Positions 1 through 11,178 of a DNA stretch of 11,425 nucleotides are shown in pieces. Both the position numbers and the translations under genes were made by a program. Source of the stretch: a bacterium (lineage in GTDB: Bacteria > KSB1 > UBA2214); the NCBI GenBank assembly GCA_029560815.1, contig JAKQKF010000071.1:1-11425 (forward strand). The letters run 5' to 3'. Each line of letters begins with the position of its first letter. Position 1 is the stretch's first letter. Under the pieces are notes generated by a model, which was not told the origin of the DNA, searched no databases, and saw only the letters and a list, made by a program, of their open reading frames with translations.

Positions 1-1391
1 GCCAGGGGCTCGCCTGCGTGCAGGGCACCTACGGATTGGCGATTATCGACGCGGAGAATCCCGACACCCTGGTGGCGGCGCGCAACGGCTCTCCCCTGGT
101 GATCGGCCACGGCGAGGGGGAGTTCTTTCTCGCATCGGACGCCGCCCCGCTGGTGGGGGTGATCAAGAGCGTCACCTATCTCGATGACGGCGAGCTGGCG
201 GTGCTGACCCGCAGCGGCATGACGGTCCGCACCATTGAAAATTGCCCCGTCGACAAGATGGCCGAGCCCATCGATCTCGATCTTCAGCAGATCGAAAAGA
301 CGGGCTATGCCCATTTCATGCTCAAGGAGATCATGGAGCAGCCCAGCACCATCGCCGACACCCTGCGCGGCCGGCTGCTGTGGGAGGAGGGCACCGCCCG
401 CCTCGGCGGCATCGAACACGATTTCGAGTCGCTGCTCTACGCCCGCCGGATCGTCCTGACCGCGTGCGGCACCTCCTGGCACTCGGCCCTGATCGGCGAA
501 TTCATGTTCGAGGAGATGCTAGGGATCCCGGTCGAGGTGGAGTATGCCTCGGAATTCCGCTACCGCAATCCTATCGTCAATGACGACTCGGCGGTCATCG
601 CCATCAGCCAGTCCGGCGAGACCGCCGACACGCTGGCGGCGATTCGCGAGGCGAAGCGCAAGCACTGCAAAGTCTATGGCATCTGCAATGTGGTGGGCTC
701 GAGCATAGCCCGGGAAACCGATGCGGGGGTCTACCTTCACGCCGGTCCGGAAATCGGCGTCGCCTCGACCAAGGCCTTCACCTCGCAGGTGACGGTCCTG
801 GCCCTCATCACCCTGCTTCTGGGGCGGATGCGCTCGATCTCCTCGGCGCGCGGCCGCGAGCTGGTCAGCGAGCTGCAGGCGATTCCGGGCAAGATCCGCA
901 AGATCCTCGAACAGCATGAGCAGATCCGCCAGATCGCCGAAATGCACCAATATGTGCGCAACTGCCTCTATCTGGGCAGGGGATACAACTACCCGGTCGC
1001 CCTTGAGGGAGCGCTCAAGCTCAAGGAGATCGCCTATGTGCATGCCGAGGGCTATCCGGCCGCGGAGATCAAGCACGGGCCCATCGCTTTAATCGACAAT
1101 CAGATGCCGGTGATGGTCATCGCCACCCGCGACTCCATCTATGAAAAGATCCTCAGCAATATCGAGGAGGTGCGGGCGCGCAGCGGCCGGGTCATCGCCA
1201 TCGCCACCGAGGGGGATCAGGAAATAAAAAAACACGCACAATATGTTATCTATGTACCGCAAACTATCGAAATGCTTTCGCCTTTGCTGACGATAATCCC
1301 CTTGCAGCTATTCGCATACTACATGGCTATCCTGCGCAACTGCGACGTGGATCAGCCGCGAAATCTGGCCAAAAGCGTTACTGTTGAATAG
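1..1391 (+). CDS. glmS: Glutamine--fructose-6-phosphate aminotransferase (isomerizing), 3' part
   Basis: This enzyme makes glucosamine-6-phosphate from fructose-6-phosphate and glutamine, the first step towards UDP-GlcNAc for peptidoglycan and LPS; it is cytoplasmic. The gene is cut by the window start. The reading frame is open from base 3, so GTG at 18 is only an internal codon. About 462 residues are visible against roughly 609 in E. coli, so the N-terminal nucleophile Cys and most of the glutaminase domain lie outside. Seen here are the end of the glutaminase domain (GTYGLAIID, ARNGSPLVIG, FFLASD), the first SIS domain from about fragment residue 148 (TACGTSWHSA, ISQSGETADT, GVASTKAFTSQ) and the second SIS domain (LEGALKLKEIAY, EIKHGPIALI). 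The C-terminus DQPRNLAKSVTVE carries the Lys that forms the sugar Schiff base in E. coli. The next gene starts 22 bases downstream, so co-transcription is likely. Identity is secure. Confidence 0.97.
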   Translation, partial: QGLACVQGTYGLAIIDAENPDTLVAARNGSPLVIGHGEGEFFLASDAAPLVGVIKSVTYLDDGELAVLTRSGMTVRTIENCPVDKMAEPIDLDLQQIEKTGYAHFMLKEIMEQPSTIADTLRGRLLWEEGTARLGGIEHDFESLLYARRIVLTACGTSWHSALIGEFMFEEMLGIPVEVEYASEFRYRNPIVNDDSAVIAISQSGETADTLAAIREAKRKHCKVYGICNVVGSSIARETDAGVYLHAGPEIGVASTKAFTSQVTVLALITLLLGRMRSISSARGRELVSELQAIPGKIRKILEQHEQIRQIAEMHQYVRNCLYLGRGYNYPVALEGALKLKEIAYVHAEGYPAAEIKHGPIALIDNQMPVMVIATRDSIYEKILSNIEEVRARSGRVIAIATEGDQEIKKHAQYVIYVPQTIEMLSPLLTIIPLQLFAYYMAILRNCDVDQPRNLAKSVTVE

Positions 1392-1413
1392 AGAACACAC
1401 GAAGGAGTTCACC

Positions 1414-3285
1414 TTGCCCCTAACGATCCGGCCCGCCGGCGCGCCTCATGGCATGACGAACTTGCGCCTGCTTATCCTCTCTCTTCTGCTCACGGCGATG
1501 CTGTGGCTGACGCCGCTGCCGGCTGACGCCCAGACCGGCAGCACCAGGGCCATTCTGGACCAGAGCCTGATCCTCTACCGGAACGGCTCCTGCGATCAGG
1601 CCAGGACCCTGCTCTTGGAGGCCCTGGACAAGCCCGCGAGCGCGCCGCACCTCAGCAAAATCTACCTGCTGCTCAGCGCAGTCCATGACAGGCTGGGCGA
1701 TACCGACAAATCGCGCTACTATGCCCTCAAGCTGATCCGGCATTTTCCGGAGAGCCGCTACCGCGATGCTGCTGAATTCGCTCTTGCGCGCGCCAGCTAC
1801 CGTGCTCAGGAGCCCGTGCCCGCCCTGGTTCATCTCCTCACCATCATCGACCGCAACCGGGATCCGGGTCTGGTCGCTACCGCCAAAATGACCGGCAGCC
1901 GCATCGTCAGTCAGGGGCTGCACGAAAGCGGGCTGGAGAGATATCTGGGCGAATTCCAGCGCGCCGCCAGCCGCAACTGGCTGCTTTACTGGCTGGCCAG
2001 GCAGGAATTCGGCCTCGGCCATCGCAGCGAGGGTGAGCTTTGGCTGCAGCGGCTGCAGATGAACGGCCCGGAGGCGCGCCTGCAGCAGCTGGCCCAGGAG
2101 ATCAGGAGCCGGCCCGCCGGGGAGCTGCTCTACAACCTGCGCATCGGCATCATTCTTCCCCTGAGCGGCTTCGAAGCGGCGAACGGGCTTGATTTTCTGC
2201 GCGGCGTGGCGCTGGCGCTGCAGGATCAACCCAGGGGCGTCGAACTGGTGCTCAAGGACTCCGGGAGCCGGATGCAGCAGGGCATCCGGGCGATGCAGGA
2301 GCTGCTCGACAGCCAGGTCGATCTGGTCATCGGTGAACTCGCCGGCGACCGCAGCGCCGCCATGGCTGCACTGGCCTCCGAACGCCGCATTCCGATGCTC
2401 GTGCCGGTCTCCTCGGACAACGGCATCGCCGCCATCGGTCCCGGCATCTATCAGATGACCAGCGACCTCGAGAGCCGCGGCGCCGCACTGGCGCGCTATG
2501 CCTATAACACTCTTGGCCTGCGCACCTTCGTCTCCCTCGCCCCCGCCGATGACTATGGCCAGGCGATGAGCGATGCCTTCGCCAACGCTATCGACAAGCT
2601 GGGCGGGACCATCATCGCGCAGCAGTGGTATTTTCCGGGTACAGGAGATGTCTCCCGCCAGTTCAGCGCCATCCGCGCATCGGCCGCTCATTTCACACCC
2701 GCCGAGCCCGGCGGCCAGAACGCCATGGAGCCGGGCGTGAGCGGAGAATACAGCTACAGCCGTCCCTCCAGCCGGCCGGCGGTTCCGGCGGACGAAGACG
2801 TGGACATCCCGCAGCTCTTCTCGATCGATGGCTTTTTCATGCCGGCTTATGCGGAAGATATTTCGATCATCGGCCCACAGTTCAGTCTCGCCCATATTAA
2901 GGCCGTCCCGCTCGGTGGAGACGACTGGCTCCACGGCTCGGCTCTCAAGAGCCAGCGGCGCTACCTGAATGGAGCGGTTTTTTGTGCCGGATCCTTTTCA
3001 GATGAGACCGCCATGGAATATATCCAGTTCAGGAATCGTTTTAGATTGACGACAGGAACAACCGGCGGCCAGTTGGCCATCGCCGGCTACGACCTCACCC
3101 ATCTGATCACCACCGCCCTCAATGCGGGCAACCGCACGGCGGCCGGAGTGATGGACTGGCTAAGCAAACCCCAAAAGCGCAGCGGATTGGCCAATGGCTA
3201 TTCCTTTGCGCCGGGCGTGAGGGTAAATCGCGAAGTGATGATACTGCAGTACAAGGATGGCAATATCACACGCTTGCCTGATTGA
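1414..3285 (+). CDS. Exported LpoA/LppC-like type I periplasmic binding-fold protein with helical-repeat N-terminus
   Basis: I place the start at TTG 1414 because AAGGAG (1402-1407) lies 6 bases before it; ATG 1453 is in frame but has no ribosome binding site. The product is about 623 residues. A hydrophobic export signal (from MTNLRLLILS to PLPADAQ, about residues 14-40) has no lipobox Cys, so a soluble periplasmic protein is expected. Residues of about 40-240 are helical and TPR-like (KIYLLLSAVHDRLGDTDKS, then FPESRYRDAAEFALARASY). From about residue 242 comes a Leu/Ile/Val-binding-protein-like domain (LRIGIILPLSGFEAANGLDF, then DLVIGELAGDRSAAMA and RIPMLVPVSSD). This two-part layout is that of LpoA/LppC proteins, which activate penicillin-binding protein 1A in gammaproteobacteria; ordinary ABC solute-binding proteins lack the helical part. 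No permease genes are adjacent, and the neighbour glmS feeds peptidoglycan synthesis, so a cell-wall role is plausible but inferred. A ligand-sensing role is the alternative. Confidence 0.8.
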   Translation: MPLTIRPAGAPHGMTNLRLLILSLLLTAMLWLTPLPADAQTGSTRAILDQSLILYRNGSCDQARTLLLEALDKPASAPHLSKIYLLLSAVHDRLGDTDKSRYYALKLIRHFPESRYRDAAEFALARASYRAQEPVPALVHLLTIIDRNRDPGLVATAKMTGSRIVSQGLHESGLERYLGEFQRAASRNWLLYWLARQEFGLGHRSEGELWLQRLQMNGPEARLQQLAQEIRSRPAGELLYNLRIGIILPLSGFEAANGLDFLRGVALALQDQPRGVELVLKDSGSRMQQGIRAMQELLDSQVDLVIGELAGDRSAAMAALASERRIPMLVPVSSDNGIAAIGPGIYQMTSDLESRGAALARYAYNTLGLRTFVSLAPADDYGQAMSDAFANAIDKLGGTIIAQQWYFPGTGDVSRQFSAIRASAAHFTPAEPGGQNAMEPGVSGEYSYSRPSSRPAVPADEDVDIPQLFSIDGFFMPAYAEDISIIGPQFSLAHIKAVPLGGDDWLHGSALKSQRRYLNGAVFCAGSFSDETAMEYIQFRNRFRLTTGTTGGQLAIAGYDLTHLITTALNAGNRTAAGVMDWLSKPQKRSGLANGYSFAPGVRVNREVMILQYKDGNITRLPD

Positions 3286-3334: not shown

Positions 3335-3658
3335 ATGGATGATGTTCTGAAAAAGGCCATGATGGCCGGTTTGGGCATTTTTTCGACGACCAAAGAAAAG
3401 ATCGAAGAATTCGTCGAAGATATGATCCAGAAGGGCGAATTGGAGCAGGGCGACAAAGCCCAGGTCGTCCAGGAAACCATGGACAAGGTTGAAGCCCGCG
3501 CCTCTGAAGCCAAACAATGGGTCAGCAAGCAGGTCGAAGAGACCTGGGAGAAGATGAAACCCAAGGCACAGGCCCAGATCGATGAGCTGCAGGAAAAGCT
3601 GGCCGGCCTCTCCAAAGAGCTCGAAGAGATGAAAGCCAAAATGGGCCCGAAGGAATAA
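3335..3658 (+). CDS. Small phasin-like coiled-coil protein
   Basis: The start is ATG 3335, with AAGGAGG at 3322-3328 six bases upstream; an open frame further 5' overlaps the preceding gene and lacks a ribosome binding site. The product has 107 residues. It opens with a short hydrophobic-leaning segment (MDDVLKKAMMAGLGIFSTTK) followed by a long charged amphipathic helix rich in Glu, Lys, Gln and Ala that is almost certainly coiled coil (from EKIEEFVEDMIQKGEL to the end MKAKMGPKE). There is no signal peptide and no Cys. The pattern AGLG-(9 residues)-EEFVEDMIQKGEL resembles small proteins annotated as 'phasin family' or 'polyhydroxyalkanoate synthesis regulator'. No PHA synthase gene is in view, so a granule role is unproven. 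It lies 49 bases after the binding-fold gene and 50 bases before the beta-barrel gene. Confidence 0.75.
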   Translation: MDDVLKKAMMAGLGIFSTTKEKIEEFVEDMIQKGELEQGDKAQVVQETMDKVEARASEAKQWVSKQVEETWEKMKPKAQAQIDELQEKLAGLSKELEEMKAKMGPKE

Positions 3659-3708: not shown

Positions 3709-4473
3709 ATGAAAAAGCTATTGGTGGTGGTTTTCTGCATGCTGGTCCCCTTTACCATGGCCTTTGCGCAGAAAACGGATGGTGTGCATCTGTTCCAGAA
3801 TTTTTTCAATGATGCCGTGGTCGCCGGCAATCCCTACGGCGAAGCCGGACTGACCTATGGCAGCTATGACGGCTTCAGCACGATCACCGGCGGTGTCCAG
3901 GGCGGACTGCCCATCGGCGAGAAGCTCGAACTCAACGTCGGTGTCCATTACCTGAACTGGAGCTATGACGACAATGATGTCGATTCCCAGGGCGGTTTGG
4001 CCGACCCCTATGTCGGTCTGCGCTATGAGCTGACGCCCGGCCCGACCCGCTTTGCAGTCGGCGGCTATGCCACCCTTCCGGTGGGCAGCGAGGACATCGG
4101 CCAGGGGCACCTGAATTTCGGCGCCTTCGGAGCCGTCCGTCACAAACTCGAGGCCTTCACCCTGACCGGGACCGTCGGCATCAATTTCTACGAGTATACC
4201 GATTATGAGCTGGATATGGATACCTTCGAGGTGGAAGAAACGACCGAACACGACAATTATCTCACGCTCGGTGCCGGTCTGATCTACCCGATGAACAAGA
4301 ACCTGGCTCTCGTCGGCGAATGGGTCCTCAAGACCGAGATGGACTATATGATGCTTAGCGGCGGTGTGGATTACAACATGGGCAACGTCCGCTACCGCGG
4401 CGGCCTGGGCCTCGGCCTGGATGACGGCGCGCCCGATCTCATGATCATGGCCAGCTATCTGCTCCAGTTCTAG
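3709..4473 (+). CDS. Outer-membrane beta-barrel protein
   Basis: The 254-residue product starts at ATG 3709 with a strong AAGGAGGAA ribosome binding site just upstream. A classical signal peptide (MKKLLVVVFCMLVPFTMAFA, cleavage before Q21) is followed by alternating hydrophobic/polar beta strands broken by Gly and Asp/Asn turns (AGLTYGSYDGFSTITGGVQG, LELNVGVHYLNWSYDDND, TRFAVGGYATLPVGSED, GNVRYRGGLGLGLDDGAPDL). The chain ends MIMASYLLQF; a terminal Phe preceded by alternating hydrophobics is the usual BAM recognition signal of outer-membrane proteins. Length and strand content fit a barrel of about 10-12 strands. There is no conserved catalytic motif I can name, so pore, adhesion or structural roles are all possible. 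It is the last gene before a strong terminator and its dense ribosome binding site suggests high expression. Confidence 0.85.
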   Translation: MKKLLVVVFCMLVPFTMAFAQKTDGVHLFQNFFNDAVVAGNPYGEAGLTYGSYDGFSTITGGVQGGLPIGEKLELNVGVHYLNWSYDDNDVDSQGGLADPYVGLRYELTPGPTRFAVGGYATLPVGSEDIGQGHLNFGAFGAVRHKLEAFTLTGTVGINFYEYTDYELDMDTFEVEETTEHDNYLTLGAGLIYPMNKNLALVGEWVLKTEMDYMMLSGGVDYNMGNVRYRGGLGLGLDDGAPDLMIMASYLLQF

Positions 4474-7248: not shown

Positions 7249-7372
7249 GATCAGCTCCGCAACCCGCGGCCTGATCGGGGCAGCCTTCCGTCCATGGAAA
7301 ATAAACCATTGCCATCGGGTGGAGATCGTCGGGAACTTTTACCGCCTCAGGCGGTTTCAAGACTAGAACCGG
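7249..7372. other. Intergenic spacer with two inverted repeats
   Basis: The 124 bases between holA and the sigma gene hold two hairpins. GATCAG (7249-7254) pairs with CTGATC (7271-7276), with an inner CCGC/GCGG stem at 7257-7260 and 7266-7269. ACCGCC (7341-7346) pairs with GGCGGT (7350-7355) over TCA and is followed by TTTC. Either may attenuate transcription out of holA, but neither has a full T tract. I see no convincing promoter before the sigma gene. Confidence 0.35.
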
Positions 7373-7969
7373 ATGAATAAAGAGAATTCCAAACTCTCCC
7401 AACTCAGCGACGAAGAGCTCATCCAGCGATTTCAGGAGGGTGATCAATACGCCTTTGACCTGATCGTGCATCGCTACAAAGATGCACTGTTCAATTTCAC
7501 CTATCGCTATCTGGGCAACTCGCAGGAGGCCGAGGATGTGGTCCAGGAGACATTCCTGCGCATCTTCCGCAACCGGTTCGCCTATCGTCAGATTGCCAAA
7601 TTCTCCACCTGGATCTATACGATCGCCGGCAATCTGGCCAAGACCGAGCTGCGCAAGCGCAAACGCCGCCGGCAGGTTTACACCTCGGATATGGGATTCG
7701 ACGACAAGGAATTCGAGATTGTGGACACCAAGGCCGATACGGAGCGCGAAGTTGACAGCATGCTGACCGAAAAGCTTATTCAGGCGGCGATCGACAAGCT
7801 GCCGGAGCGGTTCCGCAAGGTGATTCTGCTGGTGGATGTCCAGGAACTTTCCTACGAGGAAGTCAGTAAAATCATGCGTGTGCCACTTGGCACGGTCAAA
7901 TCGCGCGTCAACCGGGCCAGGCTTAAACTGCAGGGCATGCTTCAGGAGCTGTTCGATGCGCAGCGATGA
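7373..7969 (+). CDS. ECF-type RNA polymerase sigma factor
   Basis: The 198-residue protein has region 2 at about 28-95 (AFDLIVHRYKDALFNFTYRY, AEDVVQETFLRIFRN, FSTWIYTIAGNLAKTELRKR) and region 4 at about 135-190 (KLPERFRKVILLVDVQELSY, EEVSKIMRVPLGTVKSRVNR). Regions 1 and 3 are absent, as in extracytoplasmic-function sigma factors. Start ATG 7373 is the only reasonable choice because an in-frame stop lies at 7364-7366; the ribosome binding site is weak. The adjacent gene encodes a membrane zinc-finger anti-sigma factor, so activity is probably set by release from it upon an envelope signal. ECF factors usually activate their own operon, but I could not identify an autoregulated promoter in the spacer. 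The target regulon is unknown. Confidence 0.95.
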   Translation: MNKENSKLSQLSDEELIQRFQEGDQYAFDLIVHRYKDALFNFTYRYLGNSQEAEDVVQETFLRIFRNRFAYRQIAKFSTWIYTIAGNLAKTELRKRKRRRQVYTSDMGFDDKEFEIVDTKADTEREVDSMLTEKLIQAAIDKLPERFRKVILLVDVQELSYEEVSKIMRVPLGTVKSRVNRARLKLQGMLQELFDAQR

Positions 7970-8020: not shown

Positions 8021-8782
8021 ATGAAAAGTTGCGACAGAATAAAAAGGAACGCCAACCACTATCTGGATGGAACGCTCTCTCCGCGTGAAAAGCAGGAAAT
8101 AGAGGCCCATCTTCAGAGCTGCCCCGGCTGTGCAGAGTCCTTTGCCTGGGCCAGGCGGTCGCGCCAGATGCTGCGCACCCTGCCGCGGCATACCCCATCG
8201 TCCAACTTTGATGTCGTGCTGCACGCCCGGATGCGGCATGCCGAATACGAGCGCCGCAGTTTCTGGCCGCTGACCATGCCGGACTGGATTTGGCAGGCCC
8301 CGGCCTATGGAGCCGCGGCCCTGCTTCTGATCGGCGCGGGAATAGTCATCGACCGGCAGTTTGATCTCGGCCCCTCCCATCCTGTCGCTGCGCAAATGAC
8401 CACCATGGACAGCGGTGCCGCCCCGGCCGCCGCTTCACCCGCCCTCGAAGAGCCGATGAACGCCCCGGTGACGGGAAGAGCCTCCGCCCCGGCCGCCGGC
8501 CTGGTGCAGGGCCGTTTCGCCGCGAACGTTGCAGAGTCAGCCCCGGCCGATGCCGGGGAACTCGCCTCCGCCCGGCTGGAGCAGACCCAGGCGCAGACGA
8601 AACGTTATGTCATGCAGAAATTTTCCATGCAGAGTCTGATCCGGGAAAACCGCAAGGCCATCGGCAATCGCCAGGCGGCTCTCGAACAATTAGCCTTTGA
8701 TACCATGCTGGTGCGCGAAACCGCCAACCGCAGCCGCAACCTGCCCGGTATCCGCGCAGTTAATGCCTCGGTGCAATTTTGA
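8021..8782 (+). CDS. Membrane-anchored zinc-finger anti-sigma factor
   Basis: The 253-residue protein starts at ATG 8021 with GAGGT just upstream, 51 bases after the sigma gene. The N-terminal cytoplasmic part is a zinc-containing anti-sigma (ZAS) domain: Cys4, then His30-x3-Cys34-x2-Cys37 in EAHLQSCPGCAESF. This fold holds the partner ECF sigma inactive. One membrane segment follows at about 94-110 (APAYGAAALLLIGAGIVI). The outer part is an Ala/Pro-rich linker (about 125-175) and a helical tail rich in Gln and Arg (EQTQAQTKRYVMQKFSMQSL to the end). The stop overlaps the start of the HtrA-like gene (TGATG), so sigma, anti-sigma and HtrA-like protein are almost certainly one transcript. The periplasmic tail is the likely sensing or docking part; this is inferred from layout. 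Confidence 0.9.
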   Translation: MKSCDRIKRNANHYLDGTLSPREKQEIEAHLQSCPGCAESFAWARRSRQMLRTLPRHTPSSNFDVVLHARMRHAEYERRSFWPLTMPDWIWQAPAYGAAALLLIGAGIVIDRQFDLGPSHPVAAQMTTMDSGAAPAAASPALEEPMNAPVTGRASAPAAGLVQGRFAANVAESAPADAGELASARLEQTQAQTKRYVMQKFSMQSLIRENRKAIGNRQAALEQLAFDTMLVRETANRSRNLPGIRAVNASVQF

Positions 8783-9966
8783 TGCGTAGAATTCTCCCTC
8801 TCATCGCTTTGGGATTAGTCCCTCTCTCGCTTCTTGCTCAGGACGGCTCCGTTCTGATGCGCTTCGAGCAGGAGATGCGCACGCTGGTCGATAAAGTCAA
8901 ACCCTCGGTGGTGACGGTATCCGCCCAGGTCCCGCTGCTGGAGCTCATCAACGGCACCGGCCATGAGGATGAGCAGTTCGTCCCCGAAGATGTCATGATC
9001 ACCAATATCGGCTCCGGCATCATCTTTGACACGCTGCATGTCATCACGCACGTCAGCGTGGTGCTGAACAGTAAAAACATCACCATTACCACCCAGGATG
9101 GGCGCGAACTGCCCGTCTCCCTGCTCGGCGTCGACAACGAGTATGGTATTGCCGTGCTGCGCAGCCGAGTCCGGCTGCATCATCCCGCCCCCCTGACCCA
9201 GGCGGGCACTCTCATCCCCGGCAGCCATGTCACCGTGATCGGGAACGCCATGGGGGTCTCGTCCGCGGTCTCCTGGGGCATCGTCAACGCCATTCGCCAG
9301 GACGGCCTGATCCAGGTGGCGGCCAATGTGGCTGCGGGCAGCGTCGGCGGACCGGTATTTGACAGCAGGGGACGCCTGGCCGGCATGCTCGCCGGACTGA
9401 TCGTGGCCAATGACCAGACGGCCGCCACGGATTCCCGGGGTGACGCTGCGCTGGTTTATCCGATGCATGAAATCGCGGCCAATGCGCGCGAGATCATCGG
9501 CACCGGCCGCTCCGAAGCCGGCTGGGTCGGCGTGACCGCCGAAGATTGGCCCGGCGGGAGAGGCTGGGTTCACATCAGCAATGTGCGCCCCGGCAGCCCG
9601 GCCCATGAAGCCGGCCTGCGCATGGGCGATATCATCGTCAGCCTGAACGGCAGCAGCATCCACAGCTCCCTCGAGCTGGCACAGTTCGTCCGGCACAATC
9701 ATCCGGGCCGCGTCATGGCCCTGGGCGTGCTCAGAGGCGACAGCACCAAAACCTTCCAGGTCAAGATCGGCTCCAACAGCATCCGGCCGGACCCCCGCAT
9801 GCAGGAGCAGTACCGGACCGCCGTGAGAAGAGCCAAAGCGGTTCCGCAGAACAAGGTCGGCCTTCGCGCCATGCAGGAGAACGCGCGGGAGCAGGAAAAG
9901 CTCATCAAGCGCATCGAAGCCCTGGAAAAGGAACTGACCGAACTGCGCAGCAAGGTCAAGGATTAG
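8782..9966 (+). CDS. Exported HtrA/DegP-like protein with one PDZ domain; catalytic triad lost (predicted pseudoprotease)
   Basis: The start ATG 8782 overlaps the anti-sigma stop and gives 394 residues. A signal peptide (MRRILPLIALGLVPLSLLAQ) is followed by a trypsin-like HtrA domain (about 25-235), a PDZ domain (about 247-335, from GWVGVTAED through VRPGSPAHEAGLRMGDIIVS) and a short C-terminal coiled coil (KLIKRIEALEKELTELRSKV). The fold markers are clear: GSGIIFD, GVDNEYGIAVLR, VIGNAMG, and GSVGGPVFD. Aligned without gaps to the usual motifs, TNNHVV becomes THVSVV with Ser92 at the His position, DxxxDLAVL becomes DNEYGIAVL with Gly122 at the Asp position, and NPGNSGGP becomes AAGSVGGP with Val188 at the Ser position. 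Nearby His90 and Ser187 are displaced by two and one residues. Proteolysis by the normal mechanism is therefore unlikely; peptide binding, chaperoning or signal sensing for the adjacent anti-sigma factor is plausible. Fold confidence is high, inactivity fairly high, role unknown. Confidence 0.9.
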   Translation: MRRILPLIALGLVPLSLLAQDGSVLMRFEQEMRTLVDKVKPSVVTVSAQVPLLELINGTGHEDEQFVPEDVMITNIGSGIIFDTLHVITHVSVVLNSKNITITTQDGRELPVSLLGVDNEYGIAVLRSRVRLHHPAPLTQAGTLIPGSHVTVIGNAMGVSSAVSWGIVNAIRQDGLIQVAANVAAGSVGGPVFDSRGRLAGMLAGLIVANDQTAATDSRGDAALVYPMHEIAANAREIIGTGRSEAGWVGVTAEDWPGGRGWVHISNVRPGSPAHEAGLRMGDIIVSLNGSSIHSSLELAQFVRHNHPGRVMALGVLRGDSTKTFQVKIGSNSIRPDPRMQEQYRTAVRRAKAVPQNKVGLRAMQENAREQEKLIKRIEALEKELTELRSKVKD

Positions 9967-11091: not shown

Positions 11092-11166
11092 CGGGGCGTA
11101 GCGCAGTCCGGTTAGCGCGCCTGCTTTGGGAGCAGGAGGTCCTGAGTTCAAATCTCAGCGCCCCGA
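11092..11166 (+). tRNA. tRNA-Pro (anticodon TGG)
   Basis: The cloverleaf is complete: acceptor CGGGGCG (11092-11098) with CGCCCCG (11159-11165), D stem GCGC/GCGC around AGTCCGGTTA, anticodon stem CCTGC/GCAGG with loop TTTGGGA giving anticodon TGG at 11127-11129, variable loop AGGTC, and T arm CTGAG-TTCAAAT-CTCAG. The discriminator base is A11166. The 3' CCA is not encoded and would be added by tRNA nucleotidyltransferase. It lies 42 bases after rdgB. Confidence 0.97.
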
Positions 11167-11178
11167 CAGCTTTAACTT

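What the first reader, a model, noticed from the sequence alone, without database searches (positions are those of the whole stretch)
8782..9966. HtrA/DegP-like protein with all three catalytic residues replaced
The fold markers and PDZ domain are well kept, yet a gapless alignment to the HtrA consensus puts Ser92, Gly122 and Val188 at the His, Asp and Ser positions. Losing all three while keeping the surrounding framework (GSGIIF, G-x-D-x3-G-I-A-V-L, GGPVFD) suggests selection for a binding role, not decay. The Asp of the usual TDAA segment before the Ser is also replaced (Ala180). Some pseudo-HtrA proteins are known in other settings; one encoded in a sigma/anti-sigma operon would be a distinct use.
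Basis: partly seen in the sequence, partly recalled or inferred. Interest (0 to 1): 0.75.

Follow-up and report, generated by a model that had tools for sequence, protein, structure and literature searches.

The report
Dead HtrA protease in sigma-factor operon
A relative of the bacterial quality-control protease HtrA that has lost its cutting residues is kept beside a sigma factor and its anti-sigma factor across most genomes read of one little-known bacterial phylum, and that anti-sigma factor ends in an aromatic residue of the kind HtrA PDZ domains grip, which suggests a binding switch in place of a protease.

Summary
The 394-aa protein at 8782-9966 has a trypsin-like domain, a PDZ domain and a coiled-coil-like end; Ser92, Gly122 and Val188 stand at the His, Asp and Ser positions. 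It is no lone decayed gene: in 65 loci (window plus 64 genomes of the phylum of a KSB1 genome) the catalytic His is never present, Asp in 3, Ser in 6, never two together. Nine of ten genomes checked also hold an HtrA with the full triad. The gene follows an ECF sigma factor and a membrane anti-sigma factor in 63 of 65 loci, with a conserved promoter-like box in 40 of 63. New here: the anti-sigma factor ends in Phe or Tyr in 73 of 73 loci, V-x-F in 43, against 2 of 27 other zf-HC2 proteins. This resembles the outer-membrane-protein tail that DegS-type PDZ domains read. I propose that the dead HtrA caps this tail through its PDZ domain. Against exclusivity: two genomes lack the gene yet keep an aromatic tail. 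Nothing biochemical is shown. Nine literature searches showed no account of it.

The parts
8782..9966 (+). non-catalytic HtrA homologue (pseudo-HtrA), 394 aa, signal-peptide-like N-terminus
   Evidence: signal peptide judged by eye
9010..9387 (+). trypsin-like (Trypsin_2) domain, residues 77-202, without His/Asp/Ser and with the stretch before IQ (activation loop LD, name recalled) shortened
9055..9057 (+). Ser92 codon at the catalytic His position (Ser in 53 of 65 loci)
9145..9147 (+). Gly122 codon at the catalytic Asp position (Gly in 51 of 65 loci)
9343..9345 (+). Val188 codon at the catalytic Ser position (Asn 24, Ala 12, Val 7, Ile 7, Ser 6, other 9 of 65 loci)
9514..9768 (+). PDZ domain with G-W-V-G-V loop (residues 247-251)
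9865..9960 (+). C-terminal helix (residues 362-393), coiled-coil-like by eye
   Evidence: model; E382 and L388 invariant in 42 rows
8021..8782 (+). anti-sigma factor: zf-HC2 domain, one predicted membrane segment (about residues 93-111), C-terminal linker
   Evidence: zf-HC2 E 3.2e-11; hydropathy
8768..8779 (+). anti-sigma C-terminal SVQF, candidate PDZ ligand
   Evidence: control
7373..7969 (+). ECF sigma factor
7332..7360 (+). promoter-like box GGAACTTTT-N12-GGTTTCAA upstream of the sigma gene, candidate autoregulatory promoter

Best explanation
A catalytically dead HtrA, kept across most of a phylum, that works as a PDZ-carrying adaptor of a membrane anti-sigma factor. Shown by sequence: the triad is absent throughout the family, the activation-loop stretch is trimmed, the PDZ domain with its carboxylate-binding-type loop is kept, the gene order sigma / anti-sigma / pseudo-HtrA is kept, and the anti-sigma factor ends in Phe or Tyr. 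Inferred: the anti-sigma factor spans the inner membrane with its C-terminus in the periplasm; the pseudo-HtrA is secreted to the periplasm and its PDZ domain holds the anti-sigma tail, capping it against the active HtrA proteases and the RseP-type protease that the same genomes encode. When unfolded outer-membrane proteins with similar tails accumulate they compete for the PDZ domain, the anti-sigma tail is freed and cut, and sigma is released to transcribe its own operon. It would combine the shielding job of RseB with the tail-reading job of DegS in a dead protease. That the protein is non-catalytic I hold at about 0.95; the confidence below is for the tail-capping mechanism.
For: Triad: His 0, Asp 3, Ser 6 of 65 loci, at most one of the three in any; 41 of 41 nearest homologous clusters without His; 7 of 7 further divergent copies without His. 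In a quick tree 38 non-catalytic sequences are one side of a branch against 28 His-bearing HtrAs (one of them, L154, with Glu for Asp), support 100 (triad columns were left in). PDZ: 42 of 42 rows of A2 match PDZ_2; G250 in 64 of 65, W248 in 60 of 65. Operon: sigma upstream on the same strand in 63 of 65; in the other 2 no sigma was found because the contig begins shortly before. Tail: F 63, Y 10 of 73; third residue from the end one of VILMFYWA in 62 of 73; last position 3.75 bits, third from the end 2.13, positions 6 to 19 from the end under 0.9 each; V-x-F in 43 of 73. Control: 2 of 27 other zf-HC2 proteins of ten of these genomes end in F and none in Y; Fisher p 1.4e-21, not corrected for kinship. 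In L183 (G045) no Trypsin_2 match is left at E 0.01 while PDZ (E 3.5e-11) and the tail YQF stay. Fold search hits include DegS with bound YQF and YRF peptides. RseP family above cut-off in 9 of 10 genomes; 18 of 18 HtrA paralogues that cover all three positions keep the triad, of 20 found, in 9 of 10 genomes.
Against: In G022 and G023 the same locus holds sigma, anti-sigma and then a GAF-domain gene instead of pseudo-HtrA, yet the tails are still aromatic, TVSY and AVNY; the other HtrA matches of these two genomes at E 1e-30 keep the triad, and the two lie inside a clade that has the gene. So something else must be able to read the tail, or the loss is recent. No binding, topology or expression was measured; secretion and orientation are inferred from sequence. 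A relaxed promoter pattern gave no excess over the backward control (counted from the listing and the count columns), so no envelope-stress regulon was found. Contact between PDZ and tail was not modelled (single-chain prediction only).
Confidence: 0.5

Rival explanations
1. The pseudo-HtrA is an allosteric partner of an active HtrA, as reported for MamO with MamE: it joins or touches the active protease and switches its cleavage of the anti-sigma factor on or off. The anti-sigma tail would be read by the active enzyme.
For: MamO, a dead HtrA, promotes MamE-dependent proteolysis (PMC4794232, abstract and passages). Active HtrAs of about 400-425 aa and of about 500 aa occur in the same genomes. 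The N-terminal segment residues 40-45 is among the best kept parts. Tail kept where the pseudo-HtrA is lost.
Against: The pseudo-HtrA gene lies next to the anti-sigma gene in the loci read, not next to an active HtrA gene. The PDZ domain outlasts the protease-like domain in L183.
Confidence: 0.2
2. The pseudo-HtrA is a periplasmic chaperone or holdase produced as output of the stress operon, and the anti-sigma tail is a ligand for other PDZ proteins only (active DegS-like HtrA, RseP or a C-terminal processing protease).
For: Tail persists without the gene in 2 of 2 genomes with the full locus. HtrA proteins are described as chaperone and protease (PMC12826053, start of abstract in the listing).
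Against: Pairing with this one anti-sigma gene in 72 of 82 genomes would be unexplained; other zf-HC2 proteins of ten of these genomes mostly lack such a tail.
Confidence: 0.25
3. The protein is still a protease with displaced catalytic residues.
For: Seven of 65 loci have a His two residues before the His position and 20 of 65 a Ser one before the Ser position.
Against: Neither is conserved; the activation-loop stretch is missing in the 65 aligned loci.
Confidence: 0.02
4. A decaying pseudogene.
For: Absent or not found in 10 of 82 genomes; the most diverged copy has lost the recognisable protease domain.
Against: dN/dS about 0.11 for the gene and 0.08 for the protease part against L001; long open frames across the phylum, 61 of 64 matches without a stop inside.
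Confidence: 0.01

Closest known systems
DegS / AlgW (PDZ-regulated site-1 proteases of the RpoE / AlgU pathways)
   Same: HtrA fold, PDZ domain, setting of an ECF sigma and a membrane anti-sigma factor; the DegS PDZ domain binds a YxF signature (PMC8545111, passages; DegS-YQF structures among fold hits).
   Different: No catalytic residues, shortened activation-loop stretch; a signal-peptide-like rather than anchor-like N-terminus (by eye); here the V-x-F-type tail is on the anti-sigma factor itself.
RseB / MucB (periplasmic shield of the anti-sigma factor)
   Same: Proposed job; MucB/RseB form a complex with MucA/RseA and suppress site-1 cleavage (PMC8545111, passages). Operon position recalled.
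   Different: Different fold: Pfam gives only Trypsin_2, PDZ families and two weak matches below cut-off.
MucD (HtrA of the Pseudomonas algU operon; operon and activity recalled, from no call)
   Same: An HtrA in an ECF sigma operon.
   Different: MucD is an active protease (recalled).
MamO and other magnetosome HtrA pseudoproteases
   Same: HtrA that lost its active site and kept non-catalytic jobs (PMC4794232, abstract and passages).
   Different: Magnetosome setting, metal-binding di-histidine, independent origins in three taxa; here one family tied to a sigma operon across a phylum.
RsgI9 of Clostridium thermocellum
   Same: Protease-like S1C domain in sigma/anti-sigma signalling, with polysaccharide binding reported (PMC12203970, passages; chain 7sjy matches by sequence, E 5.7e-11).
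   Different: [quoted passage not shown] no PDZ-tail arrangement appears in the passages read.

Membership tests
HtrA / S1C serine protease | trypsin-like domain followed by PDZ | tested here: met
   (42 of 42 rows of A2)
HtrA / S1C serine protease | His-Asp-Ser catalytic triad | tested here: not met
   His 0 of 65
HtrA / S1C serine protease | score above NCBIfam cut-off (TIGR02037, 416.2 bits) | tested here: not met
   121.5 bits
HtrA / S1C serine protease | HtrA fold | tested here: met
   model pLDDT 76, pTM 0.59; Foldseek E 5e-23 to DegQ, TM-scores 0.44-0.59 by query length in the 50 rows shown
HtrA / S1C serine protease | proteolytic activity | not testable with these tools
   needs purified protein
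DegS | score above NCBIfam cut-off, with triad | tested here: not met
   triad absent; 89.5 bits against cut-off 422.95
RseB / MucB | RseB-type fold | tested here: not met
   no RseB-type Pfam match; the 50 fold hits shown are HtrAs
RseB / MucB (as function) | binds the anti-sigma periplasmic domain | not testable with these tools
   only the conserved tail and gene pairing speak for it
MamO-type pseudoprotease | magnetosome gene setting | tested here: not met
   sigma operon between DNA-polymerase-III-delta and Ham1-family genes in the window

The most novel reading that the evidence does not exclude
An envelope-stress switch without an active protease at its sensor: a dead HtrA whose PDZ domain is kept occupied by the anti-sigma factor's own outer-membrane-protein-like C-terminus and is titrated away by real unfolded outer-membrane proteins, serving as a main transmembrane stress pathway of the KSB1 phylum.
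Probability: 0.35. Interest if true: 0.85.

Novelty: new variant of a known kind. Interest (0 to 1): 0.68.

Why it matters
Pseudoproteases are known but seldom come with an identifiable ligand (recalled). Here the candidate ligand is encoded one gene upstream, ends in Phe or Tyr in 73 of 73 loci, and can be tested with a short peptide. If right, it shows that the DegS/RseB logic of envelope stress can be rebuilt from a dead HtrA, in a phylum with no cultured model that I know of (recalled), and gives catalytically dead HtrAs a use in sigma control.

Tried and rejected
Own-genome search: no whole genome is held for the window. Alternative dyad His90/Ser187: not conserved. Lone decay: rejected. 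A clean score gap for the family: in the profile search (best 120 of 534 hits listed) the closest members score 364 bits or more and the next row 276, but the gap does not separate all: P0101 (220 bits) and P0135 (703 aa, 180 bits) below it also lack the triad, and diverged copies in this operon score 188-225 bits, among ordinary HtrAs; 59 of 78 P rows aligned there had His-Asp-Ser. Second phylum (reached through L011, a Neomarinimicrobiota record): 3 of 149 genomes, drawn from a larger group, passed E 1e-72 and all 3 hold His-Asp-Ser; that threshold would miss diverged copies. A regulon from the promoter box: the strict pattern gave 10 matches in 10 genomes, 9 at this operon and one elsewhere (G057:C19), backward control 2; the relaxed pattern gave fewer matches than its backward control overall, so no regulon is claimed. 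Of 82 genomes, 72 have a non-catalytic copy (64, 7, 1), 2 have the locus without it, 2 have contigs that end before it and 6 gave no sigma match at E 1e-40. These are draft genomes whose completeness is not told. A recurrent Y-x-hydrophobic-D/E/Q stretch in the anti-sigma linker was seen in many but not all loci and not followed. The tail control used the 30 loci returned of 89 zf-HC2 matches in ten genomes, 3 dropped as members of this operon. On re-checking the draft of this report I fetched and read three HtrA matches of G023 and G074 that I had not read before; the two that cover all three positions have the full triad, the third is cut off before the Ser.

Full report
What is there. The window carries, on the + strand, an ECF sigma factor (7373-7969), a zf-HC2 anti-sigma factor with one predicted membrane segment (8021-8782) and the HtrA homologue (8782-9966), the last two genes overlapping by one base. 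The HtrA homologue has a trypsin-like domain and one PDZ domain, an N-terminus that reads like a signal peptide (by eye) and a C-terminal helix that looks like a coiled coil.

Not a lone copy. A protein search returned 64 homologues at E 1e-10; the 41 nearest clusters lack the His, the 23 farther ones have His-Asp-Ser. In those 41, Asp is present in one and Ser in four. The 41 also lack the stretch that precedes IQTDA in ordinary HtrAs and that corresponds to the activation loop LD (name recalled). A scan of genome contigs gave ten such loci in MAGs titled candidate division KSB1 bacterium or bacterium. In the phylum of one of them 64 of 82 genomes have one match each at E 1e-60; I read all 64 with the window: His 0 of 65, Asp 3, Ser 6, never two together. 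Eight of the remaining 18 genomes have more diverged copies. One of them, L183, no longer matches Trypsin_2 at E 0.01 but keeps PDZ.

The family as a whole. A quick tree of 38 non-catalytic and 28 His-bearing sequences (27 with the full triad, one with Glu for Asp) separates the two by one branch with support 100; some branches are long and the triad columns were not removed. In a profile search of 5.8 billion proteins (7,998 candidates scored, best 120 of 534 listed) the close members stand at 364 bits or more and the next row at 276; two rows below the gap (P0101, P0135) also lack the triad, so the family's far edge is not settled. Names given by sources for family members are KSB1 or 'bacterium' and one 'Cytophagia bacterium' row; many rows have no name. 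In a second phylum 3 of 149 genomes passed E 1e-72 and all three hits have the triad. Of the ten genomes behind L001-L010, nine also hold an HtrA with the full triad; the tenth (G002) shows fragments only. In all, 18 of 18 paralogues that cover the three positions keep it, of 20 found. So the non-catalytic gene is a specialised extra copy. It is under purifying selection (window against L001: dN/dS about 0.11 for the gene, 0.08 for the protease part, 0.05 for PDZ).

The operon. Sigma lies upstream on the same strand in 63 of 65 loci with the anti-sigma gene between; in L073 and L083 the contig starts too late. GGAACTT, usually as GGAACTTTT, lies just upstream of the sigma coding start in 40 of 63 loci, often followed after 12-13 bases by GGTTNAA or a variant of it (GGTTTCAA in the window); 23 of 63 lack it in the stretch scanned. 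GAACTT occurs in 41 of 62 upstream stretches against 181 of 3,100 random stretches of the same loci. GGAACTT is also the -35 element of the E. coli sigma-E promoter (recalled). The strict box occurs 10 times in 10 genomes, 9 times at this operon: the sigma factor looks autoregulated. No wider regulon was found.

The tail. The last residue of the anti-sigma factor is Phe (63) or Tyr (10) in 73 of 73 loci, and the third from the end is hydrophobic in 62, while the residues before are poorly conserved. V-x-F is found in 43. Eleven of 61 anti-sigma proteins have no HxxxCxxC motif and still keep the tail. Other zf-HC2 proteins of ten of these genomes end in Phe in 2 of 27 cases and in Tyr in none. 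V-x-F is close to the YxF signature that the DegS PDZ domain binds (PMC8545111, passages), and the window's own predicted outer-membrane protein (3709-4473) ends in LLQF. The pseudo-HtrA PDZ keeps a G-W-(L/I/V)-G-(V/I) loop, which in HtrA PDZ domains is the carboxylate-binding loop (recalled). The AlphaFold2 model is fair (pLDDT 76, pTM 0.59) and matches DegQ, DegP and DegS, including DegS structures with YQF and YRF peptides.

How it most likely works. The pieces fit a capping switch: PDZ holds the anti-sigma tail; competing outer-membrane-protein tails free it; an active HtrA and the RseP-type protease (family above cut-off in 9 of 10 genomes) then cut the anti-sigma factor. Gene pairing, tail and PDZ are shown; periplasmic location, binding, competition and cleavage are inferred. 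The strongest result against an exclusive pair: in G022 and G023 the gene is missing from the locus, a GAF-domain gene follows instead, and the tails are still TVSY and AVNY. The other HtrA matches of these genomes at E 1e-30 have the triad, and both genomes lie inside a sigma-tree clade that has the gene, so a loss is likely. Some other reader of the tail must then exist, plausibly the active HtrA itself. That fits a model in which the dead copy competes with a live one, but also the rival that the tail never binds the dead copy.

What is known. Dead HtrAs exist (MamO; PMC4794232, abstract and passages), and an S1C-like domain sits in the anti-sigma factor RsgI9 (PMC12203970, passages). Searches for HtrA with pseudoprotease and anti-sigma, RsgI9 or S1C peptidase, HtrA with catalytic triad, anti-sigma factor, PDZ domain and inactive, MamO, KSB1 with HtrA, pseudoprotease with DegS, anti-sigma factor with HtrA and 'lacks the catalytic', phrase variants of inactive HtrA (15 of 49 listed) and anti-sigma factor with C-terminal phenylalanine and PDZ domain showed no account of this family in their listings. 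Only open-licence papers are held; three papers were opened for passages, the rest seen as listings.

Noticed in passing
L201, L202 (G023, G022): At the same locus the pseudo-HtrA gene is absent and a gene with two GAF-domain matches follows the anti-sigma gene.
   Followed up: partly
L154, L170, L172, L173, L175: Some otherwise ordinary HtrAs of this phylum show Glu at the catalytic Asp column (HES) in the alignment.
   Followed up: no
L042, L043, L045-L047, L167, L169, L176-L182, L191, L194: A second, shorter active HtrA of about 390-430 aa; L191 and L194 tested with Pfam have one PDZ region and lie beside a transaldolase-like gene (by eye). A candidate site-1 protease.
   Followed up: partly
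L183:3417-4520: Pseudo-HtrA whose trypsin-like domain Pfam no longer recognises while PDZ and (by eye) the C-terminal coiled coil remain.
   Followed up: partly
window about 8603-8617 and other anti-sigma linkers: Recurrent Y-x-hydrophobic-(D/E/Q) stretch in the linker of many anti-sigma proteins; a possible second binding site.
   Followed up: no
P0101, P0135: Two further HtrA-like proteins without the triad below the family's score gap; their gene context is unknown.
   Followed up: no
window 3335-3658: Phasin-like protein above the Pfam gathering score (31.2 against 28.8 bits).
   Followed up: no
window 1384-3285: Periplasmic-binding-protein-like protein of 633 aa (Peripla_BP_6) with a weak TPR-like match before it.
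   Followed up: no
window 11092-11167: tRNA-Pro (TGG) gene.
   Followed up: yes
L081: Anti-sigma gene lies in two overlapping frames; frameshift or sequencing error not decided.
   Followed up: no
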